Shown here: piece by piece, positions 22,369 to 53,860 of the stretch | Layout: each line of letters opens with the position of its first letter | How positions within the stretch are numbered: position 1 is the stretch's first letter | NCBI GenBank assembly: GCA_902623995.1 | Contig: CACNWE010000007.1 | Coordinates: 1 to 64,000 of the forward strand | Direction: 5' to 3' | DNA length: 64,000 bases | From: an uncultured SAR116 cluster alpha proteobacterium | Lineage (GTDB): Bacteria; Pseudomonadota; Alphaproteobacteria; Puniceispirillales; Marisalimonadaceae | Notes under the pieces: generated by a model | Databases searched by the model: none | Told to the model about the DNA's origin: nothing | Seen by the model: the letters and a program-made list of their open reading frames with translations, nothing else | Program-made: the position numbers and the translations under genes

Positions 22369-22779
22369 ATGAATTATATTAAAAATATTACTAACCCTCT
22401 TGAAAGAAGAAGACTTCAAATAGGATACAGTCAAAAAGAAATATCTAAACTTCTTGGTATAACCCAATCTCAGTATTCTAGAATTGAAAAAGGTGATACG
22501 GATCCAAACAAACATTTAAAAAAATTATCAAAGATCTTTAATTGTGAACCAAATGAAGTTTTTCATGGCAAAATATTAAGAGAAATAGAAGACGATTTTT
22601 TAAATGATCCAACTAATACTTTTCATAGAATATTTCATGAAAGAAAACCTGGATATGTAAATTTAAAAATAAAAGGATGGTTCACAAAGAGGCAAATTAT
22701 AGATAATTACGAAATGCTCATAAAAGAATTAGATGATTGGAAAGTCAATGAAGATGGAATTAGATGGAAATATAAATAA
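22369..22779 (+). CDS. XRE-family transcriptional regulator
   Basis: A 136-aa protein with an N-terminal Cro/cI-type HTH (about residues 10-62): ERRRLQIGYSQKEISKLLG and ITQSQYSRIEKGDTDP are the helix-turn-helix pattern. The C-terminal 70 residues (RKPGYVNLKIKGWFTKRQII) match nothing I recognise and may sense a ligand or dimerise. No Shine-Dalgarno precedes the ATG, and the promoter almost abuts it. It marks the left side of the accessory island and has no clear partner gene. Confidence 0.85.
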   Translation: MNYIKNITNPLERRRLQIGYSQKEISKLLGITQSQYSRIEKGDTDPNKHLKKLSKIFNCEPNEVFHGKILREIEDDFLNDPTNTFHRIFHERKPGYVNLKIKGWFTKRQIIDNYEMLIKELDDWKVNEDGIRWKYK

Positions 22780-23169
22780 TAAAGATAATTTTGAGTAAAT
22801 ATCTGAAAAAAATTAAAAGAAATCAAACTAGAATTTCCAGATCTTACACAAAATTATACAATCAATTATTATAAAAAAATAGAATAGTCAATGAATGAAA
22901 ATACTAGTGTGTTTGAAATCAATGAAATAATGTTTAGAAATGTGAACTCTGTTAGTAAAGTAATAGAAAATGTAGTTAAAACTGAAATAAATATTAAGTA
23001 ATTTTGTCAAAACATTTAATACTTAATTATTTAAAAATACTCTATGGCCAAAATATTCAACATAACAGTATCATAATTACTCATATTTTAAATATAATAA
23101 ACAGAGCTAACAATTAACATTAGCCAGAAAAAAGTTTCAATACTCACTACTTTATAAAAAAAATTTGTT
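22780..23169. other. Intergenic stretch without supported gene
   Basis: About 390 bases of AT-rich sequence. It holds only very short frames, such as a 36-codon frame at 22891-23001 on the plus strand, with no recognisable domain. It is probably eroded accessory DNA at the left side of the glmS island. No terminator hairpin or RNA gene is evident. Confidence 0.4.
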
Positions 23170-23318
23170 TCATTTCTTATTTTCATTTTTATTAATACAG
23201 TTCAAAAATAACTCAACGGAAGTCTGATTAACATATTCTTCACATTTTTTAAATGAATTTAATAGAAGTTTTTTTTCAATGAGTTTTTTTTTATGTTGAT
23301 CATAATTGAATTTTTTTT
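23170..23318 (-). pseudogene. Truncated copy of the secreted protein gene at 30343-30843
   Basis: The minus-strand frame reads EKKFNYDQHKKKLIEKKL and continues to ELFLNC before diverging and stopping at 23170. It is nearly identical to residues about 22-62 of the protein encoded at 30343-30843, and the DNA is identical for roughly 68 bases (about 23238-23305). The start codon and signal peptide are absent: a stop lies just upstream in this frame. It is a partial duplicate, same strand as the full copy. Confidence 0.8.
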
Positions 23319-23321
23319 CAT

Positions 23322-23825
23322 TTATATTTTATTTTTATTAGGTTTGTTATCATAAATATTTTGATAATTTTCAGATAATCTATTCATTTCATTAAAAAAT
23401 TCAATTTCTGAAAACGGCTGACACTTTCTAGTGTTATATTTTTCTGTTTTTGTAATATTCATTTTGCTTAAAATTAATGTCTTTCTATCTAAAGAATAAG
23501 CGTAAATATTTAAACTATCTTTATAGGTCCATTTAATTTTATTTTCATCAGACAAAAATCTTTTTTTCTTTCGAAGAGTTGTTTGGATATTCTCACCTAC
23601 CATAATTTTATCACCAATTTTTCTTATATAATATATAGCTACTTTATTAATTTTAAAATGAAATCCAATTTCTGTTGGAATATTATTTGGCATATATGAT
23701 GAAGGGTCTAAATGTTCTAACTTACAATCTAAACACTTACAAACAATTCCTTTGCCATCTACACTTCCAAAAGATGGAAAAGACTGTATTAAAAGTATCA
23801 AAGTTATTATAAAAAGATTTTTCAT
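23322..23825 (-). CDS. Secreted hypothetical protein
   Basis: A 167-aa protein with a clear signal peptide (MKNLFIITLILLIQSFPSFG) and three close cysteines at the mature N-terminus (CKCLDC), plus one near the C-terminus (RKCQPF). The leader resembles that of the protein at 30343-30843 (both contain LxLQSFP/IQSFP), which suggests a related or recombined family. No domain is recognised. It begins 2 bases after the stop of a decayed gene (23828-24028) and ends where the truncated duplicate begins. Confidence 0.6.
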   Translation of the reverse strand: MKNLFIITLILLIQSFPSFGSVDGKGIVCKCLDCKLEHLDPSSYMPNNIPTEIGFHFKINKVAIYYIRKIGDKIMVGENIQTTLRKKKRFLSDENKIKWTYKDSLNIYAYSLDRKTLILSKMNITKTEKYNTRKCQPFSEIEFFNEMNRLSENYQNIYDNKPNKNKI

Positions 23826-23827
23826 TA

Positions 23828-24028
23828 TTAAATTCTCAAAATTTTTTCTGACCTAATTACTAAATGTTCTTTTAAATTAATTATTTTATAATCTTTTACT
23901 TTTTTCAATCTTTTTAAATAATTTTGTCTATTCAAATCAACTAACTATGATGTACATTCTAATCCACTAAATATTATATTGTTATTACTATTTAAGAAGT
24001 TTGGAATTCTTTTAGTGCCAAATCCCAT
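23828..24028 (-). pseudogene. Decayed gene fragment with internal stop
   Basis: Minus-strand reading from an ATG at 24028 gives MGFGTKRIPNFLNS, continues to FSGLECTS, meets a TAG at 23945-23947, and stays in frame with LVDLNRQNYLKRLKKVKDY until a TAA at 23828. The composition before and after the stop looks like one protein. The remnant ends 2 bases before the start of the secreted protein gene, like an old operon. The family is not recognised. Confidence 0.45.
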
Positions 24029-24157
24029 ATCGTATTGTGATTGGAAAAGTTTCAATTTAATTCTCTTTGGGATTTAAGTTTGCAGATAATTCTTAGTTTC
24101 GATTTATACGTTAAACTTAATTGATTTAGGAAATAATAAAAGTATATAAAATCAATT

Positions 24158-24198
24158 GCTTATTCGACAGTCTTTGAACTGGGTTGAATACGGATTTA
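24158..24198. repeat. glmS-end-like repeat remnants
   Basis: On the minus strand, 24158-24176 reads AAGACTGTCGAATAAG, close to the last bases of glmS (TGACTGTGGAATAG). Immediately beside it on the plus strand is a weaker copy with GAATACGGATTTA. These lie just beyond the 3' end of the gene at 24221-24652. Confidence 0.4.
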
Positions 24199-24220
24199 AA
24201 CTGATACAATACTTTTTACA

Positions 24221-24652
24221 TCAATACTCTAATATATAAATCGCTCCTTCAAAGACATAATAACCTTTATTAGAATTATTTTGAGTAATAAAAGGATACA
24301 TAACTTTTCTATCAAAACCTTTTGTTCCATTACAAGTTATTCGGTGAACAAATATTTCTTCATCTATAAAATTAACTTTTAATTTTTTAAATAAATAAAA
24401 TTCCCTATTTTTTAAAAATTCATCAGGAGTGTATGAATTATATGTTTTTGACTGTCCAGCGTAATCACAGGAATAAAAAACTCCTTTAGACCATCCTTTA
24501 TAAAAATTTTGTGTTTTACCGATTATATTCTTTGTGTCCGCAAACCATGCTTCACCTAAAAAATCCATAACTTTCCATTTTGTATCAATAAATTGTCCAA
24601 ATGCGTAAGTAACATAAAATAAAAACATAATTAGAAAAAAAACACGTTTCAT
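24221..24652 (-). CDS. Secreted hypothetical protein
   Basis: A 143-aa protein with an N-terminal signal peptide (MKRVFFLIMFLFYVTYAFGQ) and two cysteines in the mature part (YSCDYAG and RITCNG), which could form a disulfide in the periplasm. The mature region is rich in aromatic residues. No family is recognised. It is in the glmS island, flanked on both sides by decayed sequence. Confidence 0.6.
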   Translation of the reverse strand: MKRVFFLIMFLFYVTYAFGQFIDTKWKVMDFLGEAWFADTKNIIGKTQNFYKGWSKGVFYSCDYAGQSKTYNSYTPDEFLKNREFYLFKKLKVNFIDEEIFVHRITCNGTKGFDRKVMYPFITQNNSNKGYYVFEGAIYILEY

Positions 24653-24702
24653 AAAATTCTCTACTTATTAATCAAAATGCTAATTGTAAAAGTAACATAA
24701 CT

Positions 24703-24870
24703 TTAATTCTTTTCCCACTTAACTTCCATAGTTCCCCACTCAAGTTCATACTCCTATTCAGAAGTTCTAGTTTCTCTTCTCTTAGACAGTACTTCTTGAG
24801 AACTGAGTTAACAGAGTTTATATTTGCAACTTGGAATACCCTTTCCCTCCTCGCCTACTCATCAATTTAT
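24703..24870 (-). pseudogene. Frameshifted fragment of a recombinase-like DNA-binding protein
   Basis: Two minus-strand frames read as one broken protein: NSVNSVLKKYCLREEKLELL in one frame, then EYELEWGTMEVKWEKN and a TAA at 24703 in another. The first part aligns by eye with VHSIVKKKRLKDEKLE of the remnant at 26287-26578. This pattern is typical of the C-terminal end of serine-recombinase-like ORFs. The rest of the gap 24653-24966 holds no other gene. Confidence 0.5.
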
Positions 24871-24944
24871 TAGTTTGGACTATAACTACAAAACACAAAA
24901 AATTAGCATATTTAGGTTCAGAGTTTTGACCACTCAAACCTAAT

Positions 24945-24967
24945 CGACGGTAACCTTCTAGGTTTCC
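24945..24967 (+). repeat. glmS-end-like repeat
   Basis: Plus-strand GACGGTAACCTTCTAGGTTT resembles the copies at 25541 (GACTGTAACAGAATAGATTT) and 27238. It lies at the 3' end of the 2H phosphoesterase gene. Similarity is partial and was judged by eye. Confidence 0.4.
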
Positions 24968-25479
24968 TATAAAACGAAAGTTTTAATTATCTTCCATGAA
25001 AACTTATCTTCATTAACATCTACTATACAAATTTTATTCAAAATAATTTTCATGTTCACATCACCCAACTCATCCTTTATTATATTTTTTTCTTTTTTTG
25101 GGAAGTTACCGTAAGTTAAACTTACATGTGGTGAAAATGAAGTAAATTGATTTTCTTGCAAGGAACCCCGCAAATCATTTCTAAAATTTATCAAAGTAGA
25201 GGATTTTTTAATTTCGATAAAAAAAGAAGTAAAAAAATTGTTACTTGTCATATATCTTTTAGCAAAAATTTCTATTGGTTTCCGGTTTGTACATATATTT
25301 TTAATTTCGTTTATTTTGTCTTTGTCCATAGACATAAATGGACCTAATAATGTAAGGTGTATATCGAAATTTGGTCCTTTTAATTTTTCATTTACACGTG
25401 ATTTAATACTATCAAGGTAAACCATATCCCTATCTAGAAATTGACCCCAAATCCAATGTGCTTTACTAATCCTTTTCAT
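24967..25479 (-). CDS. 2H phosphoesterase (2'-5' RNA ligase/cyclic phosphodiesterase-like)
   Basis: A 170-aa protein with the two HxT/S motifs that define the 2H superfamily: H41-L-T in IHLTLLGPF and H118-V-S in SPHVSLTYG, about 77 residues apart. Such enzymes hydrolyse cyclic or 2',5'-linked phosphodiesters in RNA or nucleotides. The specific substrate is unknown. It is in the glmS island; defence-related or RNA-repair roles are possible but not shown here. Confidence 0.75.
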   Translation of the reverse strand: MKRISKAHWIWGQFLDRDMVYLDSIKSRVNEKLKGPNFDIHLTLLGPFMSMDKDKINEIKNICTNRKPIEIFAKRYMTSNNFFTSFFIEIKKSSTLINFRNDLRGSLQENQFTSFSPHVSLTYGNFPKKEKNIIKDELGDVNMKIILNKICIVDVNEDKFSWKIIKTFVL

Positions 25480-25540
25480 ACTTATAATCTTTTATATAGC
25501 TTTAGAAATTACAATATAAAAAAATATTTATAGGAAACCA

Positions 25541-25570
25541 TTGACTGTAACAGAATAGATTTCAAATGAC
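25541..25570 (+). repeat. glmS-end-like repeat
   Basis: Plus-strand TTGACTGTAACAGAATAG followed by ATTTCAAATGAC matches the glmS end (GTGACTGTGGAATAG then ATTTAGAACTAC) apart from a 3-base insertion and a few changes. It is inverted relative to glmS and sits at the 3' end of the 90-aa coiled-coil gene. Confidence 0.55.
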
Positions 25571-25842
25571 TATATTTTTAAATTTAATTTCTTTAATTCC
25601 TCTTTTTCCTCATCCGTGAATGTAGAAGATATTTCAGATATTTTATTATGGGTTTCTTTAAATTCTTTCATAATTTTATTTATAATTTTTATATCACTTT
25701 TTAATTTTTTTTTACTATTGATAGTAGAATTAGAAAATTCATTTTCATCTTCATCATTATTAAGTTCTACTAATTTAGTACTAAGTTCTTCAGACTTTTT
25801 TAATAATTTTTCTAATTTAATTAATTTTTTAGATACTGTCAT
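25570..25842 (-). CDS. Hypothetical coiled-coil protein
   Basis: A 90-aa, highly charged protein without signal peptide or membrane segment. Lysine, glutamate and leucine heptad-like spacing (LIKLEKLLKKSEELSTKL and MKEFKETHNKISEIS) predicts a coiled coil. The low-complexity composition means the ORF could arise by chance in AT-rich DNA, although the start and length are reasonable. No function can be offered. Confidence 0.45.
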   Translation of the reverse strand: MTVSKKLIKLEKLLKKSEELSTKLVELNNDEDENEFSNSTINSKKKLKSDIKIINKIMKEFKETHNKISEISSTFTDEEKEELKKLNLKI

Positions 25843-25873
25843 TTTTTAAAACCATGATTAAATATAATTAATA

Positions 25874-26086
25874 TTATCTCATAAATCTTTCAATATAAAG
25901 TCTTTCCCTCAAACTTATGATTTGATTATTTGTGAAACGATTTAGTCTTTGGTTGTATTTTTTAATACCCATAAAGACATCTTTTGGTGTGTATTTAGTA
26001 TTGGTTTTAAACTTTTTAATATTACTAACATTTAAAAAGTCTGTGATCTCTCTATTTGAAAAACCAATAATACAAAGGTGATTCAT
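25874..26086 (-). CDS. Recombinase-like DNA-binding fragment (paralogue of 30925-31233)
   Basis: The 70-aa ORF contains GFSNREITDFLNVSNIKKF and a basic C-terminal helix, aligned with GWSNKQITDYLNSKNFKTL of the ORF at 30925. The pattern (G-x-S-x-x-E/Q-I-x-x-x-L-N) is that of the recombinase domain following serine-recombinase catalytic domains. The same frame is open upstream to at least 26203 without an ATG and still aligns with the other copy (NLGVFRL against QLGVFNL; NKFRK against NRFRT). The true start is unclear; the gene is probably a truncated recombinase. Confidence 0.5.
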   Translation of the reverse strand: MNHLCIIGFSNREITDFLNVSNIKKFKTNTKYTPKDVFMGIKKYNQRLNRFTNNQIISLRERLYIERFMR

Positions 26087-26195
26087 TAATTCTAATCTTA
26101 ATGACCTCTTATTATTAAGTCTAAATACACCTAAATTGTTTGATTGAATTGTAAGATTGAATATAAAATAAAACTTATATTCGAATATAGTCTTC

Positions 26196-26215
26196 CGAAA
26201 TTTATTACACTGTTT
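26196..26215 (-). repeat. glmS-end-like repeat at the head of a recombinase fragment
   Basis: Minus-strand CAGTGTAATAAATTTCGGAA corresponds to glmS-end GTGGAATAGATTTAGAA and to the same codons that begin the recombinase-like ORF next to glmS. It therefore marks a second copy of the glmS-end/recombinase junction. The match is imperfect. Confidence 0.45.
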
Positions 26216-26286
26216 TGAATATTGCGTGTGGGTATACTTTTTTAAACACCGACTTTTTCTTCTGTTTTACAATCACTCAAAGATCT

Positions 26287-26578
26287 CCTCACTTAAATGT
26301 TCCATTGTATTCAGAATACCAATTCTTTGTTTATGAAACAATTACTGCTCTAAGAAAAAAAAGGAAAGACCTTTGACCAAATCGCACAGTGGTTAAACAA
26401 GAAAGGTTATCTATCTGTTCGTGGGAAGAAGTTCAAAGGTAATCATGTTCATTCAATAGTGAAGAAAAAAAGACTCAAAGATGAGAAGTTAGAACGAGTG
26501 CATACGGAGGTTCGTTCTGATTTTTATTTAGATATTTTTGATAGAACCTTAATTAATATAGAAAAAAGCGACGAATAG
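26287..26578 (+). pseudogene. Recombinase-like gene remnant with a frameshift in a poly-A run
   Basis: Plus strand: PLYSEYQFFVYETITALRKK in one frame, then, after a run of eight A (about 26355-26362), TFDQIAQWLNKKGYLSVRGK in another frame, continuing through NHVHSIVKKKRLKDEKLE to a TAG at 26576. The two parts make a sensible single protein only if the frame changes at the A-run. The IAxWLNKKG and SVRGKKF pattern is that of serine-recombinase DNA-binding domains. Divergent from the fragment at 25874. Confidence 0.6.
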
Positions 26579-26705
26579 ATTTTTTCAGATATTTTTGTTA
26601 ATCTGTAAATAGTTAGTAATGTTATGAAGTAGAAATTGTGAAAAAAATTTTCATTGAAATGGTTTTTCTAATTTGACTCGTTTTTATCAATTTTTTAATT
26701 CTTAG

Positions 26706-27020
26706 TTAGAAAGTAACATTACATTTTTGTCCAATGCCTATCATTGCAATTCCAACATTCATTAAAGATTCCATATTATTGTTATCCATTTTATCTTGAC
26801 CATTTGCTCTGGCATTCCACATTTCAATGTATTTGTTCCATTCGTCTTTTTTAACTAAGGGTTTAGTCTCTTTAATCAAACATTTTACCTGTTTTTCAGT
26901 AATTTTATAATCATACATTAGTCCTTGGATAACATTATCTTCTTTACTGGAAGTTTCTGAACAAGCACCATACAAAACTGAAATTAATAATATTGAAATA
27001 TATAAGATTAATTTTTTCAT
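26706..27020 (-). CDS. Small exported protein, possible lipoprotein
   Basis: A 104-aa protein with a hydrophobic N-terminus (MKKLILYISILLISVLYGAC). The cysteine at 20 follows GA, so it may be a lipoprotein, although tyrosine at -3 is not a standard lipobox residue. Two further cysteines (QVKCLIK and GQKCNVTF) could form a disulfide. The mature region is helical and charged. No family is recognised. Confidence 0.55.
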   Translation of the reverse strand: MKKLILYISILLISVLYGACSETSSKEDNVIQGLMYDYKITEKQVKCLIKETKPLVKKDEWNKYIEMWNARANGQDKMDNNNMESLMNVGIAMIGIGQKCNVTF

Positions 27021-27169
27021 AAATTTGTTTTAACATATCTATTCAATGAAATCTTCTTTTAAATTCCTTTTGGATTAAGTTTGAAAAATGATTAATGATA
27101 ATGAATGTTTTTCTATTAAGTCTGTAAATAGTGATATTTTTGAAGTCAAAATTTTGCATACCTATGTGA

Positions 27170-27185
27170 CTATTCCACAGTAACC
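27170..27185 (-). repeat. glmS-end-like repeat
   Basis: The minus strand reads GGTTACTGTGGAATAG, in which the last 12 bases (ACTGTGGAATAG) are identical to the last 12 bases of glmS including its stop codon. Orientation is the same as glmS. Confidence 0.55.
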
Positions 27186-27189
27186 AAAT

Positions 27190-27231
27190 GAGTTTAAAGT
27201 ACTACATTCTGAATTGTAATACTTTAAACTC
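27190..27231. repeat. Strong hairpin between two glmS-end-like repeats
   Basis: GAGTTTAAAGTACTACA (27190-27206) pairs with TGTAATACTTTAAACTC (27215-27231), 16 of 17 positions, with an 8-base loop. The hairpin is enclosed by direct repeats CCACAGTAACCAAAT (27175) and CCACTGTAACCGAAT (27235). No T-run follows, so it is not a typical terminator. It resembles the tip of a small mobile or recombination element. Confidence 0.6.
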
Positions 27232-27234
27232 ACT

Positions 27235-27267
27235 CCACTGTAACCGAATAGATTTAGAATTACTTTT
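27235..27267 (+). repeat. glmS-end-like repeat, inverted relative to glmS
   Basis: Plus strand GAATAGATTTAGAATTAC followed by TTTT (27246-27267) matches the bases spanning the glmS stop codon (31267-31288, minus strand) at 21 of 22 positions. This is the best copy in the island and lies at the 3' end of the small membrane protein gene. Confidence 0.7.
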
Positions 27268-27273
27268 AAAAGT

Positions 27274-27393
27274 TTATTTTTGATTTGTTCTTATAAAAAA
27301 CTTTATATCGTCAAGTGTAATATATATTCTGTGTAACCCAAATATTATCAATATTAATAATAAAATCATTATTATTTCAAACCATATACCCAT
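27274..27393 (-). CDS. Small membrane protein (39 aa)
   Basis: A 39-codon ORF with an unusually strong ribosome binding site for this genome (GAGGAG, six bases before the ATG at 27391-27393). The peptide MGIWFEIIMILLLILIIFG is a single hydrophobic helix followed by a basic tail. Such small membrane proteins often modulate larger membrane proteins. The family is unknown and it was too short for standard ORF cut-offs. Confidence 0.5.
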   Translation of the reverse strand: MGIWFEIIMILLLILIIFGLHRIYITLDDIKFFIRTNQK

Positions 27394-27564
27394 AAAGTCT
27401 CCTCATTTTTAATAATATAGAGTTCTAACAATTTATAAATCCCAAACTAGTAAATCAAATACCAAATTAGACTTTTTAGAATTTTTGGATATTCAATATA
27501 CAAAAACAAAAATAATGATATGTAAATTTCCCATCTAATAATTTTAAAAATTATATCAAATTGA

Positions 27565-28446
27565 TTAGTCATTTAATTTTTGTTTTCTCCCGTCCTTCCA
27601 ACTTATAGTTTTTTTAAAGGTACCATCCTCGTGGTAATATTTCCAAACACCATCTCTTTCATTCTTTATGTATGTACCTTCTTGTTTTAACTGACCATTC
27701 TTGTGGAATAATTTCCAAACTCCCACTCTTTTTCCATTAACAAATTTACCTTTTTGTTGTAATTTTTTACCTCCATAAAAATACTCCCAAATACCCTCTT
27801 TAAAATTTCCTTCTTGGTCAAATGTACCTTGAGAGATTAAAATACCTTCTGGATTAAAATACTTCCATACACCACTTCTTTTATTATTTTTGAAATTACC
27901 TTTATAACGAAATCCTATACCATTTTTAAAATTGACTCTTAGATACTTATAATCTTCAATTTCCCAAAAACCTTCTCTTTTATTATTTATATACTTACCT
28001 TTCATTTCTAACTGACCATTTTCTTTGAAATACTCCCATCCACCATTCATTTTACCATTTACATATTTCCCATGATGATCAATTTTTCCGTTAACTTTGA
28101 AATACTCCCAAAAACCCTCCTTTTTACCATTTACAAATTTTCCTTTTGAATTTAATTTACCATTACTGTCAAAATCTTTCCAAACACCTTCTTCTTTACC
28201 ATTTTTAAAATTTCCTTTTTTAGATAACTGACCGTTACTATGATAAAATGTCCAAGTTCCATTTTTTTTTCCATTTTTGAATTTACCTTGTATCCTTCCA
28301 ATTACTTTTCCTGTGAAGGGTAAATCAGAAAATTTTTCATAATAATTATTTTCTCTGATCACTAAATCTTTATATGTTAAATCTTTACTCCATCCAGATG
28401 TAAAAAAAAGAGAAAAAAACAACGAAATTATAAGGATTTTTTTCAT
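27565..28446 (-). CDS. Exported MORN_2/YwqK-type repeat protein
   Basis: A 293-aa protein with a signal peptide (residues 1-20, ending SGWSK) followed by about nine repeats of the form NGxxxGxWxxFxxNGxLxxxGxF, for example GTWTFYHSNGQLSKKGNF and GVWKDFDSNGKLNSKGKF. This is the MORN_2 variant found in YwqK antitoxin-like proteins. The export signal argues for a periplasmic or outer-membrane role and against a cytosolic antitoxin. It overlaps the upstream MORN_2 gene by one base (TAATG), so the two are coupled. Confidence 0.8.
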   Translation of the reverse strand: MKKILIISLFFSLFFTSGWSKDLTYKDLVIRENNYYEKFSDLPFTGKVIGRIQGKFKNGKKNGTWTFYHSNGQLSKKGNFKNGKEEGVWKDFDSNGKLNSKGKFVNGKKEGFWEYFKVNGKIDHHGKYVNGKMNGGWEYFKENGQLEMKGKYINNKREGFWEIEDYKYLRVNFKNGIGFRYKGNFKNNKRSGVWKYFNPEGILISQGTFDQEGNFKEGIWEYFYGGKKLQQKGKFVNGKRVGVWKLFHKNGQLKQEGTYIKNERDGVWKYYHEDGTFKKTISWKDGRKQKLND

Positions 28447-29471
28447 TAATCTTTACCTTTAGTCTTAATTAATTCATCGTCCTCATAGTAAGACCATAAA
28501 CCAATATCTCTGTTAAAATATCTCATTCCACTACTTTTCAATATACCTTCATTATTAAACATTTTTATAAAACGTTTCTCAAATTCTTCTTTGTCATATT
28601 CTTCAGTCATTTGAAGTTTTCCATTTAGACGATAGTAAGTCCAATTCCCATATTTGTAATTATCGTAATATTCACCTTTAGAAGACAATTCTCCGTTATC
28701 AAAAAAAGACTCATATAATCCGTGTTTCCAACCCTCTTTGTAATTTATTTTTCTATGAACATTTCCATTTTCATAATATTCAATTAGAAGACCATCTTGT
28801 TCACCATCTACATAGAAACTTTTCCATTCAAGATTTCCATTTTCATAAAATTTTTCTTCTACTCCAACTTGTTTTCCGTCTATGAAAGTCTGAGATAATT
28901 GTATGTTTCCATTTTCATAAAACTCTTTCCAAAAACCGTGTTTTCTTCCATTTTTAAACTGAAAATGACTCCCTACCTTATTTTGTTCATAAAAATGAAT
29001 AACATCTCCATTCCATAAACCATCTTTGAATTCAAATCTTTGTGATATTTCTCCATCTTCATATTGTTCAAACAGACCATCAAGTTTTCCATTTTTGTAA
29101 GTTCCTTTTCTATACAACTTCTTTCTTATATACTGTTCAAACTTTCCGTGTTCTTTTCCATCTTTCCAGTTTTTAAAACCATCATAAATTCCCTTTAAAT
29201 TGAACTTTTCTGATAGTCCATGTTTAAGACCATTCTTATAATTAATTCTCCTGACTACTTTTCCTTTCTCAAAAAACTCCCACGGACCTTCTCTTTTACC
29301 CTCAATTAACCTTCCAACTGAAGTACCTTCAACAATACCTGTAAAAGGTTTATGTATTCCTTTCTTATAAAAAAGTCCTTTATAAACGTATGTGTCCTGA
29401 GAGTTAATAGTTTCACTAATTGATACAGAAGATATCAGGGTGGATATAATTATTAATAAAAATTTGGTCAT
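28446..29471 (-). CDS. Exported MORN_2/YwqK-type repeat protein
   Basis: A 341-aa protein from the ATG at 29471, chosen because it gives a proper signal peptide (MTKFLLIIISTLISSVSIS); an ATG at 29513 would add 14 residues. About ten MORN_2 repeats follow, such as EGPWEFFEKGKVVRRINYKN and GFWKEFYENGNIQLSQTF. It is the first gene of a two-gene coupled unit and divergent from a third MORN_2 gene at 29529. Specific function unknown. Confidence 0.8.
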   Translation of the reverse strand: MTKFLLIIISTLISSVSISETINSQDTYVYKGLFYKKGIHKPFTGIVEGTSVGRLIEGKREGPWEFFEKGKVVRRINYKNGLKHGLSEKFNLKGIYDGFKNWKDGKEHGKFEQYIRKKLYRKGTYKNGKLDGLFEQYEDGEISQRFEFKDGLWNGDVIHFYEQNKVGSHFQFKNGRKHGFWKEFYENGNIQLSQTFIDGKQVGVEEKFYENGNLEWKSFYVDGEQDGLLIEYYENGNVHRKINYKEGWKHGLYESFFDNGELSSKGEYYDNYKYGNWTYYRLNGKLQMTEEYDKEEFEKRFIKMFNNEGILKSSGMRYFNRDIGLWSYYEDDELIKTKGKD

Positions 29472-29528
29472 AATTAAATTTTGATTTAAAATTTTGTTAA
29501 AATTATGTTTCATTAAAAGTGTATAGAA

Positions 29529-30311
29529 ATGAAAATATTATTAATTCTATTTTTACTATTTTTTTTATCTTCAAAATCTTATTCAAACGATTTTTTATGT
29601 AAATATTTTGATACTAATTGTGAGACGGTAAGTTTCAAAAAAGTTCAAATAAGAGAAAAGAAGTTTTATAAATTTAATTCTTTAAAACCTTTTACAGGAA
29701 ATATTGTTATTAATTTAGAAGAATTTATATTGGTTGATTATTTAGAAATGGGTGAAGAAGGAAAAGTTATTGATGGTATCAGAGATGGAGAATGGAATGA
29801 GTATAAAATATACAACAAACAAACCGATTTATGGTCAAAAGAAATATATGAACATGGTAAATTAATACAACAAAGTTTTTGGGAAAATGGAATTTTACTA
29901 AAAATTAGAAATTATAAAAATGGAGTATTAGATGGAAATTACGAAGACTGGGGTGTTTTCAATTCACTAGGGGTTCCATGGGAAAAGGGAAATTACAAAA
30001 ATGGTAAAAGGATTGGATGTTGGGAGTTTCTTAAGTTTGTTGATAATAATTCCTCTAACAATTACATCGTGAAAGATTGTTATAATTCAAAAGATTTCAT
30101 ATTTAGTGAGATTTATGAAGTTGGTAAAAATAATCCTTTATATTCAGGGAAAAAAAAGTATCAAGGATGTTATTTTGGAGAATGGACCCAATATGATTTT
30201 AAGGGTAAAGTTAAAGAAAAAATAAATTTAGGTAGTCAGTGTAATTTTGGGTATTTTGTTCCTGAAATAGAAAAATTATTTAAAAATCCTATATGGTATC
30301 GGTTAAAATAA
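29529..30311 (+). CDS. Exported MORN_2/YwqK-type repeat protein
   Basis: A 260-aa protein with signal peptide (MKILLILFLLFFLSSKSYS). The mature N-terminus has a cysteine pair (CKYFDTNC), then imperfect MORN_2 repeats (GEWNEYKIYNK, GNYEDWGVFNSLGVPWEKG, CWEFL, GEWTQYDFKGK). Repeats are more degenerate than in the two divergent neighbours. The three genes form a MORN_2 cluster in the island and probably arose by duplication. Confidence 0.75.
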   Translation: MKILLILFLLFFLSSKSYSNDFLCKYFDTNCETVSFKKVQIREKKFYKFNSLKPFTGNIVINLEEFILVDYLEMGEEGKVIDGIRDGEWNEYKIYNKQTDLWSKEIYEHGKLIQQSFWENGILLKIRNYKNGVLDGNYEDWGVFNSLGVPWEKGNYKNGKRIGCWEFLKFVDNNSSNNYIVKDCYNSKDFIFSEIYEVGKNNPLYSGKKKYQGCYFGEWTQYDFKGKVKEKINLGSQCNFGYFVPEIEKLFKNPIWYRLK

Positions 30312-30342
30312 TTTAAGTTCTTTTCTCATAATTCTACAGATT

Positions 30343-30843
30343 TCATTTTTTAATATACTTCTGTAAATCTTTAGTTAATTCTTTTATTGAAGACAAATAA
30401 CTACATTTATATTCTTCTCTACCTTTAGTATGTATTAAAATTAATTTATCTTTGTAAACAGTACCAATATATCTTATTTCAATATAAGATTTTTTTTCAT
30501 TATAATTTACATTTCTACTTTTTATTTGTTTGTCTGATAAAAAATAACTATTCAATATTTTTGAATTTTCAAAGTAAAAGTAAAATGGATAACCTCTAAT
30601 AGTAGGTTCTTTTTTTTCACATTTTATTGATTTTCCTAAAAATTCATTTCCGTCACTACAATTCAAAAACAATTCAACTGATGTTTTATTAATGTACTCT
30701 TCACATTTTTTAAATGAATTTAATAGAAGTTTTTTTTCAATGAGTTTTTTTTTATGTTGATCATAACTAAATTTTTTTTCTTCAGATAATAAAGGGAATG
30801 ATTGAAGAACAAAAATTAGAATTAAAAGGACTATTTTTTTCAT
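30343..30843 (-). CDS. Secreted hypothetical protein
   Basis: A 166-aa protein with signal peptide (MKKIVLLILIFVLQSFPLLS), a lysine-rich helical region (YDQHKKKLIEKKLLLNSFKK) and four cysteines (KKCEEY, LNCSDG, IKCEKK, YKCSYL) likely to form disulfides. Residues about 22-62 have a near-identical truncated copy at 23170-23318. No domain is recognised. It ends just after the MORN_2 gene at 29529, facing it. Confidence 0.6.
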   Translation of the reverse strand: MKKIVLLILIFVLQSFPLLSEEKKFSYDQHKKKLIEKKLLLNSFKKCEEYINKTSVELFLNCSDGNEFLGKSIKCEKKEPTIRGYPFYFYFENSKILNSYFLSDKQIKSRNVNYNEKKSYIEIRYIGTVYKDKLILIHTKGREEYKCSYLSSIKELTKDLQKYIKK

Positions 30844-30924
30844 TTTTTATTTATAACGAATAAAGAATAAAAACGAAAATAATACTTACTACAATCATTA
30901 ACAAAAACTTCTTATAAACTTCCT

Positions 30925-31233
30925 TCATTTTATCCTTTTTTTTACCAATTCTCGAATTTTTTCTAACGGTAGAGACACATTTATACTTTCTTTAATTCTT
31001 AAAATTCTATCAGATTTTCTAGACAATCTATTTTTAAATTTATGAATAGTCATCCAAATCAATTTTGTAGTGTATTGTTTTCTTGTTCTAAGTGTCTTAA
31101 AATTTTTTGAATTTAAGTAATCTGTAATTTGTTTGTTTGACCAACCTTGAAGATGTAAATCATAGATCAATTTTAATCTTTGTTTTCTTTTAGGATCTAA
31201 ATTAAACACACCTAATTGTGTTGATTCGACCAA
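30925..31233 (-). CDS. Recombinase-like DNA-binding protein next to glmS
   Basis: A 102-aa ORF (TTG start) with LIYDLHLQGWSNKQITDYLN and TLRTRKQYTTKLIWMTIHKF, a pattern like the recombinase domain of serine recombinases without any catalytic domain. The frame is open upstream through KFYFEYN and NRFRTTFG, which still align with the paralogue at 25874, and runs into the last bases of glmS in a shifted frame. It therefore looks like the remaining 3' part of a recombinase brought in at the glmS end. Confidence 0.5.
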   Translation of the reverse strand: MVESTQLGVFNLDPKRKQRLKLIYDLHLQGWSNKQITDYLNSKNFKTLRTRKQYTTKLIWMTIHKFKNRLSRKSDRILRIKESINVSLPLEKIRELVKKRIK

Positions 31234-31266
31234 GACATTATACTCAAAGTAAAACTTTTCATCACC

Positions 31267-31288
31267 AAAAGTAGTTCTAAATCTATTC
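31267..31288 (-). repeat. Reference glmS 3'-end sequence for the dispersed repeats
   Basis: Minus strand: GAATAGATTTAGAACTAC then TTTT, including the glmS stop codon TAG. Related copies occur at about 24158, 24945, 25541, 26196, 27170 and 27246. The 3' end of glmS is the recognition site of Tn7-family elements, which insert just downstream of the gene. Confidence 0.6.
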
Positions 31289-33130
31289 CACAGTCACTGA
31301 TTTTGCTAAATTCCTTGGTTGATCCACATCAGTCCCTCTTTCATTAGCAACATGATAAGCTAGTAATTGAGCTGGGATTGCCATAAGAAATGGTGATAAT
31401 AATGATTTAAAATCCGTTTCAAAATTTGGTATTTCTATTTTATGATGAGCAAAAGAGGCCTTTTGAATACAATTTTTGTCTGCAATTAAAATTATATTTG
31501 CACCTCTTGAGAAAGCTTCTTGCAAGTTACTTATTGCTTTATCTTCGTTGCCATCCGATACTAAAAACATAATTACTGGCACTTGATCTTCAATAAGGGC
31601 AATTGGACCATGCTTCATTTCGCCAGCTGCAAATCCTTCAGCATGAATATAACTGATTTCTTTCAATTTCAATGCACCCTCCAATGCAAGAGGATATAAA
31701 AGTCCTCTGCCAAGAAATATTATATTCTTTGCATTTTTTATATTCTGAGCTACCAACTTTATTTCATTTGCCATATTTAACATTTGAGCAATAGCGTTAG
31801 GTAAAGCTAATATATTAAAACAAATTTTTTGTGTTTGATCTGTTGTGATATTGTTAAATTTTTTTCCAAGAGCAACAGCAATTAAAAATAAAATAACCAA
31901 CTGAGAAGTAAAAGATTTTGTGCTTGCAACACCAATTTCTGCTCCTACTCTAGTATATAGACTATAATCTACTTCCCTATCTATTGTACTACCTTCAACA
32001 TTAACAATTGCATTAGTATTTAGTCCAAGTTCTTTGCCATGTCTTAATGCCATAAGCGTGTCCAAACTTTCACCAGATTGAGAAATAACTAACATAGCAC
32101 TTTGACCAAAAACAGATGGTTTTCTGTATCTATATTCTGACGCTAAGTCAATTATAACAGGTAAATCAGCTAGTTGTTCTATCCAATATTTACCAACCAT
32201 TGCAGCATAATAACTTGTCCCAGCTGCGGATATTAGTAATGTATTTTTATTTTTAAATCCTAATTTATTTAGATCTATTTTAATTTCAGAGTTATTTTTA
32301 ATAAATGTTGAAATTGTCTGAGGAATAACTGAAGGCTGTTCAAATATTTCCTTTTCCATGAAATGTCTATAACCACCTTTTGTAATCAAACCAATTTCAG
32401 CTCTTATATTTATAATTTTTCTATCAACTTTCTCATCATTCATATTAAAAATCTGAACATCTTCTAAGTTAATTAATGCATGATCGCCATCTTCTAAGTA
32501 AATTATCTTTTGGGTAAGATGATCTATTGAGTGAGCATCTGATCCTACAAAGTATGATTTGTCACCCAAACCAATAGCTAGAGGTGACGAATTTCTTGAT
32601 ACAAATAATTCATTTGGAAAATCTACACTCATTGCAACAAAAGCAAATGCGCCTTTAATATCTTTTAAAACCATCCTACCTGCTTGCAACAAATTATTTC
32701 CTAATTTGATATATTTTGTAAAGAGATGTGGTAATACCTCAGTATCAGTTTGACTTTTAAAACTATATCCCTCTGACATAAGTTTGTTTTTTATTAATTC
32801 ATAATTTTCAATAATTCCGTTATGGACAACAGCTACTTTATTTTCACTAGTCAATGGATGAGCATTTTCAATGCTAACATTACCGTGTGTAGCCCACCTT
32901 GTATGACCCAAAGCTATATCAGTAACAGATTTTAAATTTGAATAAGATACTTTACTTAACTTATTAATTAAATTTATTAATTTACCTTCAGATTTAATAA
33001 TGTTGAGGGTCTCATTAGAAACTGAAGCAATGCCCGCAGAGTCATATCCTCTATATTCAAGTTTTTTTAAACCTTCAATTACGAGTTCACTTGCATTTTG
33101 CTTTCCTATAACTGCAACAACACCGCACAT
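31283..33130 (-). CDS. glmS: Glutamine--fructose-6-phosphate aminotransferase
   Basis: A 615-aa enzyme making glucosamine-6-phosphate for peptidoglycan and LPS. The N-terminal glutaminase starts MCGVVAVIG with the catalytic cysteine at position 2, followed by LEYRGYDSAGIA, GHTRWATHG and HNGIIENY. Two SIS sugar-isomerase domains follow (LLISAAGTSYYAAMVGKYW, IFLGRGLLYPLALEGALKLK), and the C-terminus DQPRNLAKSVTVE is typical. It is divergent from glmU. Its 3' end borders the accessory island. Confidence 0.98.
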   Translation of the reverse strand: MCGVVAVIGKQNASELVIEGLKKLEYRGYDSAGIASVSNETLNIIKSEGKLINLINKLSKVSYSNLKSVTDIALGHTRWATHGNVSIENAHPLTSENKVAVVHNGIIENYELIKNKLMSEGYSFKSQTDTEVLPHLFTKYIKLGNNLLQAGRMVLKDIKGAFAFVAMSVDFPNELFVSRNSSPLAIGLGDKSYFVGSDAHSIDHLTQKIIYLEDGDHALINLEDVQIFNMNDEKVDRKIINIRAEIGLITKGGYRHFMEKEIFEQPSVIPQTISTFIKNNSEIKIDLNKLGFKNKNTLLISAAGTSYYAAMVGKYWIEQLADLPVIIDLASEYRYRKPSVFGQSAMLVISQSGESLDTLMALRHGKELGLNTNAIVNVEGSTIDREVDYSLYTRVGAEIGVASTKSFTSQLVILFLIAVALGKKFNNITTDQTQKICFNILALPNAIAQMLNMANEIKLVAQNIKNAKNIIFLGRGLLYPLALEGALKLKEISYIHAEGFAAGEMKHGPIALIEDQVPVIMFLVSDGNEDKAISNLQEAFSRGANIILIADKNCIQKASFAHHKIEIPNFETDFKSLLSPFLMAIPAQLLAYHVANERGTDVDQPRNLAKSVTVE

Positions 33131-53451: not shown

Positions 53452-53572
53452 ACGAATGTCTCAAAAAAAAGTTATACACAATCATTATGTGCTCTTTAAT
53501 AAAAAAAATAAATGCTGTATAGTAAAAAAGTCATTTCTATGACTATGGTGATAAACATTTTTTAGAATAAGC

Positions 53573-53824
53573 TTAGCGGACCCGGGGGCGGTACCCGGCA
53601 CCTCCACCAATATTTGGGGGTGAAACAGGATCGACGTATGTAGTAAAAATTAAACTTTCACTCGGCATTGTACCACCGTTATCGGACTAATTTAAATAGT
53701 TGCAAACGACAACTATGCTCCGGTAGCTGCAGCAGCGTAAGCAGCCAAAGCAACCGAAAACTAGTCCTGTTCTATAGCTAGAACTGGCGGGGTTATTGTT
53801 TACCTGGCAACAGAAAAACTTTGG
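53573..53824 (+). ncRNA. ssrA: tmRNA, circularly permuted two-piece type
   Basis: The 3' acceptor piece comes first: T-arm CCGGGGGCGGTACCCGG then CACCTCCACCA (CCA at 53607-53609). After only six bases (ATATTT) the 5' piece starts GGGGGTGAAACAGGATCGAC (53616). GGGGGUG pairs with CACCUCC, leaving a G3-U wobble, the alanine identity element. The tag frame at 53702-53740 reads ANDNYAPVAAAA and stop, within stems resembling P5 (GCTGC...GCAGC). The outer ends are approximate. tmRNA rescues stalled ribosomes. It precedes sspB. Confidence 0.92.
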
Positions 53825-53860
53825 TGGCGAGAAGTAACTTCTCGCCATCTTAAAATTTTT
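53825..53860 (+). terminator. Rho-independent terminator after ssrA
   Basis: A perfect 10-bp stem TGGCGAGAAG/CTTCTCGCCA with a TAA loop (53825-53847), followed by a T-rich tract ending TTTTT. It is the most GC-rich hairpin in the region and fits the end of the tmRNA transcript. Confidence 0.85.

What the first reader, a model, noticed from the sequence alone, without database searches (positions are those of the whole stretch)
24158..31288. Dispersed copies of the glmS 3' end through the island
At least six imperfect copies of the sequence around the glmS stop codon occur: about 24158 and 27170 and 26196 in glmS orientation, and 24945, 25541 and 27246 inverted. The best (27246-27267) matches 21 of 22 bases and another shares the last 12 coding bases exactly. 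Several sit at the 3' ends of island genes. They look like attachment-site footprints or element ends left by serial insertion.
Basis: partly seen in the sequence, partly recalled or inferred. Interest (0 to 1): 0.8.

Follow-up and report, generated by a model that had tools for sequence, protein, structure and literature searches.

The report
Serine-integrase cassette array behind glmS
The repeated scraps of the glmS gene end are the joints of a row of small gene cassettes that were inserted one after another into the last codons of glmS in a marine bacterium of the SAR116 group, most likely by a serine integrase.

Summary
The window holds seven glmS-tail sites (the live end plus six downstream, three of them decayed), all in glmS orientation; the "inverted" copies are the other face of a quasi-palindromic site. 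In 61 regions from the window's genome and relatives (SAR116, Puniceispirillales) I found 169 sites, 56 of them live glmS ends. The stretches between neighbouring sites are cassettes, down to 60 bp (median 1.4 kb); 57 of 109 show clear inverted terminal arms.

Bases 0-8 of the 21-nt site follow the left neighbour and bases 11-20 the right one. The switch falls on a nearly invariant AC in the Thr codon of glmS ..T-V-E-stop, and the arms are palindromic about that same AC: the signature of serine-integrase strand exchange. Some relatives carry a large serine recombinase whose match ends 33-113 bp before a tail (8 of 9 loci) and whose sequence co-varies with the arms. The window's genome has no match to it, so its cassettes look non-autonomous.

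65 of 109 cassettes encode a stand-alone HTH protein related to the recombinase's DNA-binding domain, usually beside an arm, reading inward; its role is unproven. The nearest known system is SCC/ECC at rlmH.

The parts
31283..33130 (-). glmS, host target gene; stop codon 31283-31285
   Evidence: C-terminus ..QPRNLAKSVTVE*
31283..31303 (-). site S0, live glmS tail AAATCAGTG-AC-TGTGGAATAG; inferred exchange dinucleotide AC at 31293-31294
27241..31292 (-). cassette E1 (4053 bp between core positions): arms, HTH gene, 166-aa, 260-aa and two MORN_2-repeat proteins
   Evidence: arms agree at 21 of 28 positions; same arm and HTH type in G042 and G043
31267..31288 (-). left arm of E1, GAATAGATTTAGAACTACTTTT
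   Evidence: nearest arm beside a recombinase is that of G088, 17 of 24
30925..31233 (-). stand-alone HTH protein, Pfam Recombinase (PF07508) DNA-binding domain; no resolvase domain among its matches
   Evidence: (22.8 bits, cut-off 21.1)
27230..27250 (-). site S1
   Evidence: 25.6 bits
27181..27239 (-). cassette E2: 60-bp element that is only two arms (a hairpin)
   Evidence: copy directly at glmS in G013 (100% over 60 bases) and 94% copy in another genus, G048
27170..27190 (-). site S2
   Evidence: 23.6 bits
26213..27179 (-). cassette E3 (968 bp): lipoprotein-like 26706-27020 and a broken HTH gene on the + strand (26351-26533) reading inward from the right end; arms weak (12 of 28)
   Evidence: same cargo between two sites in G002
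26202..26222 (-). site S3, decayed (ATATTCAAA-AC-AGTGTAATAA)
   Evidence: homologous site in G002
25548..26211 (-). cassette E4 (665 bp): second HTH gene (match 25886-26161) and 90-aa ORF 25570-25842
   Evidence: arms 20 of 28
25539..25557 (-). site S4, read as having a 2-nt deletion
24951..25546 (-). cassette E5 (597 bp): 2'-5' RNA ligase-like protein 24967-25479
   Evidence: arms 7 of 28 as they stand, 14 with GTTTCCTATAAA matched when a 2-nt gap is allowed; PF13563 4.9e-07
24940..24960 (-). site S5
   Evidence: 13.5 bits
24171..24949 (-). cassette E6 (780 bp): 143-aa protein 24221-24652; arms weak (12 of 28)
24160..24180 (-). site S6, decayed (..K-T-V-E-stop)
22369..24159 (.). distal part, probably old: weak HTH remnant 23840-24118 (-), 167-aa 23322-23825 (-), XRE-type regulator 22369-22779 (+)
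   Evidence: HTH remnant E 0.0045; XRE and 167-aa genes lie between sites in G018, where these sites score 11.9 to 19.4 bits

Best explanation
The island is a row of non-autonomous cassettes inserted by large serine integrases at an attachment site inside the last codons of glmS. attB is the end of glmS (codons for ..K-S-V-T-V-E-stop). The circular cassette's attP would be its two inverted arms joined around a copy of the same sequence. Recombination at the 2-bp core AC of the Thr codon replaces the third base of Thr, then Val, Glu and the stop codon, with the cassette's own version, so GlmS stays intact, and the displaced tail becomes the far end of the cassette. Every insertion therefore leaves one more tail in the same orientation, and sites between cassettes are hybrids of neighbouring arms. 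Shown by comparison: hybrid sites, position of the switch, dyad centre, shared orientation, shared elements between genera, recombinase matches next to sites, recombinase/arm co-variation. Inferred: that this recombinase catalyses the exchange, that it acts in trans on cassettes lacking it, and circular intermediates. For E1 the nearest arm beside a recombinase is that of G088 (AG-894-M09), 17 of 24 bases, next best 12; the other window cassettes have no clear partner. The small HTH protein probably binds the arm beside its gene and controls direction or stability of integration (inferred, weak).
For: Mutual information with the neighbours: columns 0-8 follow only the left context (84 sites in 17 clusters; 0 of 500 shuffles reach the value in each column; right context 58 to 382 of 500); columns 11, 14, 17, 19, 20 follow only the right (138 sites in 24 clusters; 0 of 500; left 90 to 352); columns 9-10 (AC) follow neither. 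Live glmS ends alone (33 sites in 9 clusters) agree: 0 of 500 for columns 11, 17, 20, 6 for 14, 8 for 19. Independent: of 109 elements, 42 have arms palindromic at >=14 of 18 and all 42 centre between A and C; 57 reach >=12 (55 at that centre), 52% against 7.0% for arms of different elements. The recombinases have Resolvase + Recombinase domains and resemble A118 and TP901-1 integrases; a tail starts 33-113 bp behind the end of the tblastn match in 8 of 9 loci. Recombinase identity against arm identity: r 0.83, 0 of 5000 permutations, n 9. HTH: 87 of 105 non-recombinase hits lie 65-135 bp inside a site reading inward, 0 outward, 18 neither. In all 10 genomes outside the order found with the HTH among 385 of the class, it lies next to a glmS tail.
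Against: The window's own genome (89% complete) has no match to the G042 recombinase at E<=1e-5. 52 of 109 elements do not reach 12 of 18 palindromic arm matches, and three of the window's six cassettes (E3, E5, E6) have weak arms: sites may be missed or decayed, and some cassettes have unlike arms. No excision or circle was observed. Loose pattern counts in the window's genome are not above control. The recombinase lies beside the right arm, and in 4 of 9 its open frame runs 17 to 395 nt past the start of the site, so co-variation may partly be common descent. The shuffles ignore relatedness between genomes.
Confidence: 0.88

Rival explanations
1. Tn7-like transposons inserting behind glmS (TnsD-guided), the repeats being transposon ends or target duplications.
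For: Tn7 targets the same glmS end (recalled).
Against: The junction lies inside the coding end, not some 25 bp behind it (the Tn7 distance is recalled); each element carries its own tail; a dyad around a 2-bp core is seen, and a serine recombinase in some relatives. Tns proteins were not searched for by family.
Confidence: 0.03
2. A tyrosine-recombinase or integron-type cassette system.
For: Small cassettes in an array with sites in one orientation look like an integron (recalled).
Against: The left/right switch spans 2 bp rather than the 6-8 bp spacer of tyrosine recombinases (recalled), and the recombinase next to the sites is of the serine type. Tyrosine recombinases were not searched for by family.
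Confidence: 0.04
3. The array is moved only by homologous recombination between glmS loci; the site features are relics.
For: Only 10 of 101 genomes searched have a match to the G042 recombinase, 3 of them fragments.
Against: Reassortment resolved to 2 bp within 21-nt sites and a 60-bp element found in three genomes of two genera are not expected from homologous exchange alone; it may still contribute.
Confidence: 0.05
4. Chance similarity, or a coding constraint (genes ending in the same residues).
For: Loose matches are as common as controls genome-wide.
Against: 54 against 5 orientation bias, and 41 against 0.55 expected at a strict cut. Of the tails other than live glmS ends, none closes an in-frame stretch longer than 54 codons.
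Confidence: 0.01

Closest known systems
SCC / ECC cassette chromosomes (CcrAB serine recombinases, 3' end of rlmH)
   Different: Target is glmS; elements have a median spacing of 1.4 kb and go down to 60 bp; many arm types occur in one array; a stand-alone HTH gene sits beside an arm; two autonomous forms pair a large recombinase with a 196-199-aa one. Restriction-modification genes are among the cargo here.
Tn7 and Tn7-like elements
   Same: Same target, the glmS end (recalled).
   Different: Exchange inside the codons with replacement of the glmS end, and a serine recombinase. Tns genes and target duplications were not looked for.
Integrons
   Same: Row of small cassettes with sites in one orientation, movable without a recombinase of their own (recalled).
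   Different: Serine recombinase; the site copies a housekeeping gene end; arms differ between cassettes. attC was not searched for.
Phage serine integrases (A118, TP901-1)
   Same: Sequence similarity and domain order of the recombinase; 2-bp core and dyad att sites (core of phage integrases recalled).
   Different: The G042 recombinase has no tblastn match at E<=1e-20 in 50,697 phage or 72,556 plasmid records, and no relative was confirmed in IMG/VR by pattern search with the six-member alignment.

Membership tests
Large-serine-recombinase integrative elements | Recombinase with Resolvase + Recombinase domains, catalytic Ser motif and Zn ribbon | tested here: met
   Resolvase and Recombinase in 4 of 4 large recombinases scanned; the Zn-ribbon model matched 1 of 4 (8.8e-05, below its cut-off); Y-x-R-V-S and two downstream Arg invariant in 6 of 6. 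Found in relatives, not in the window's genome.
Large-serine-recombinase integrative elements | Strand exchange at a conserved asymmetric 2-bp core, directional insertion | tested here: met
   (inferred from sequence, not biochemistry)
Large-serine-recombinase integrative elements | Integration and excision by the recombinase | not testable with these tools
   needs an experiment
SCC/ECC | Insertion in the 3' end of rlmH | tested here: not met
   Target is glmS
SCC/ECC | ccrA/ccrB or ccrC recombinases | not tested
   no direct comparison with Ccr proteins was run
Tn7-like | TnsA/B/C/D genes | tested here: inconclusive
   Not among the 25 of 75 Pfam families shown for 100 cargo proteins; the other 50 were not shown
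Tn7-like | Insertion downstream of the glmS stop codon | tested here: not met
   Exchange inferred at the Thr codon
Integron | IntI tyrosine recombinase and attC sites | not tested
   no family search for IntI or attC was run
HTH protein as stand-alone serine-recombinase DNA-binding domain | Sequence similarity to the Recombinase domain | tested here: met
   PF07508 22.8 bits against cut-off 21.1, profile positions 2-43 of 102; hhalign with the recombinases E 8.7e-05, probability 60
HTH protein as stand-alone serine-recombinase DNA-binding domain | Structural match over the whole domain | tested here: inconclusive

The most novel reading that the evidence does not exclude
A serine-integrase counterpart of the integron: arrays of small cassettes mobilised in trans, in which a cassette encodes its own arm-matched DNA-binding partner (the stand-alone Recombinase-domain protein) that gives a shared catalytic integrase its arm specificity or its direction.
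Probability: 0.25. Interest if true: 0.88.

Novelty: new variant of a known kind. Interest (0 to 1): 0.74.

Why it matters
If right, marine SAR116 bacteria have a nucleotide-defined port for gene acquisition in an essential gene, at the same place as Tn7 but by another enzyme. The C-terminus ..QPRNLAKSVTVE is shared by the glmS ends read here in several alphaproteobacterial families, so its DNA is a broadly available attB and the recombinases are candidate integration tools. The arrays carry restriction systems and many small unknown genes, a place to look for new anti-phage functions. The HTH gene makes the control of serine-integrase direction testable.

Tried and rejected
Ungapped Hamming scans alone were too weak to decide. 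Loose whole-genome pattern counts gave no excess over control. Growth by addition next to glmS was not supported: tail score against rank from glmS rho 0.002 (102 tails), and full-length HTH by rank 36 of 40, 21 of 28, 9 of 12, 7 of 7, 4 of 5. An adaptor-only idea, in which the HTH and not the recombinase reads the arms, was weakened by recombinase/arm co-variation, though the HTH also co-varies with the arms (61 HTH-element pairs; r 0.57 proximal, 0.32 distal, 0 of 2000 permutations). Viral, phage and plasmid collections gave nothing for the recombinase; the HTH search of viral contigs did not run.

Literature: searches listed no paper whose title or abstract start describes glmS cassettes moved by a serine recombinase. 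I saw listings only and opened none of those papers; the library holds open-access PMC papers alone.

Unexplained: some right ends keep a longer glmS-like stretch (..QPRNL..TVE) that is not part of a long frame. Left arms of the CATTGATTT type go with unlike right arms.
Full report
WHAT IS THERE. glmS (31283-33130, minus) is followed by an island of about 7 kb. One search, with a matrix from 156 tails of other genomes, gives 28.7 (live end), 25.6, 23.6 and 13.5 bits; three more sites (S3, S4, S6) are decayed, were not found at its 7-bit cut, and rest on position and arms. One match outside the island (1733-1753, 14.6 bits) has no other support.

THE COMPARATIVE PICTURE. In relatives, DNA diverges at the glmS stop codon, yet genomes of different genera share what follows it (G002 and G050; G003, G010, G046 and, less closely, G040; G004 and G042; genera). 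Downstream lie more tails: in 21 regions 54 same-orientation, 5 inverted and 5.1 expected per strand at >=8 bits. In 61 regions, the window's included, there are 169 tails at >=10.5 bits, 56 of them live glmS ends. 42 of 56 glmS regions have at least one further tail; some of the other 14 are short contigs. Between adjacent tails I count 109 elements, from 60 bp up, median 1364 bp. The longest spacing (18.2 kb, G041) probably rests on a chance site (12.7 bits).

WHERE THE CUT IS. Site columns were tested against the sequence to the left and to the right. Columns 0-8 follow the left neighbour, the variable columns from 11 on the right one, and columns 9-10 (AC) neither. Separately, inverted arms of one element are centred between that A and C in 42 of 42 strongly palindromic cases and in 55 of 57 at a weaker cut; 52 of the 109 elements do not reach that weaker cut. 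Two signals meet at one dinucleotide, as expected of a serine integrase. glmS thereby receives its last codons from the cassette.

THE ENZYME. Two long first elements (G042, G009) end in a 196-199-aa resolvase-like protein and a 570-aa large serine recombinase. 10 of the 101 genomes searched match the G042 recombinase, 7 over nearly all its length and 3 as fragments; the window's genome does not. The organism names come: of 9 named loci, five are titled SAR116 cluster, one Rhodobacteraceae, one Paracoccaceae, one Alphaproteobacteria and one Proteobacteria. In 8 of 9 a tail starts 33-113 bp behind the end of the match; the exception is the Paracoccaceae locus, 29% identical. In 4 of 9 recombinases compared, the open frame itself runs past the start of the site. 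Recombinase similarity tracks arm similarity (r 0.83, n 9). E1's right arm is nearest to that of G088 (17 of 24, next 12).

THE SMALL HTH GENE. Of 110 HTH hits, 5 are the recombinases themselves; of the other 105, 87 lie 65-135 bp from a site and read inward, 0 outward, 18 neither. 65 of 109 elements contain an HTH match, and 33 of 56 glmS genes have one directly behind. In a class-wide draw 13 of 385 genomes have it at E<=1e-8; in all 10 outside the order it lies next to a glmS tail, at the live end in 9 and at a second tail 1.3 kb downstream in G219. Its model is confident (pLDDT 91.9); the structural match to serine integrases is suggestive only, the sequence match better.

CARGO AND FLANK. 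100 of 174 cargo clusters were scanned; among the families shown (25 of 75 in Pfam, 25 of 322 in PADLOC) are type I, II, IIG and IV restriction-modification genes and DUF4379. The window's cassettes carry MORN_2-repeat proteins and a 2'-5' RNA ligase-like protein. The same 166-aa cargo sits in cassettes with different arms (E1 here; G002, G032), so cargo and arms reassort. Beyond the array a gene that I take for a photolyase (by eye, not scanned) is found behind the last detected tail in 13 relatives; the 167-aa and XRE genes before it lie between sites in G018.

SMALLEST CASSETTE. E2 is 60 bp, two arms and nothing else. It stands directly at glmS in G013 and occurs in another genus (G048, 94%). 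Arms are therefore probably sufficient in cis.

VERDICT. A serine-integrase cassette array, SCC-like in principle but not at the SCC target. The mechanism is strongly inferred from sequence; biochemistry, circles and the HTH role remain open.

Noticed in passing
L159/L166, L167, L168 (downstream tails); tails in G001, G010, G030, G035, G045, G088: Some right ends resemble the glmS coding end for 40-45 nt (e.g. DQPRSLTKKITVE-stop, DQPRNLTTTLTVE-stop) without being part of a long frame; possibly arms that copy the B half-site.
   Followed up: partly
window 23200-23320 and 30690-30775: Very similar DNA (by eye) at the ends of two small-protein genes, in the distal part and in E1: cargo duplicated or exchanged within the array.
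   Followed up: no
window 22369-22779: XRE-type regulator kept near the photolyase-like gene in many relatives, but lying between tail sites in G018, G025 and G007.
   Followed up: partly
L080, L081: Autonomous elements encode two serine recombinases in tandem, one of 196-199 aa; the role of the small one is unknown.
   Followed up: no
cargo of relatives (2 of 100 scanned; by eye L064 and L066): DUF4379 zinc-finger proteins recur as cassette cargo.
   Followed up: no
window 53513-53831: tmRNA gene with tag ANDNYAPVAAAA, unrelated to the island.
   Followed up: no
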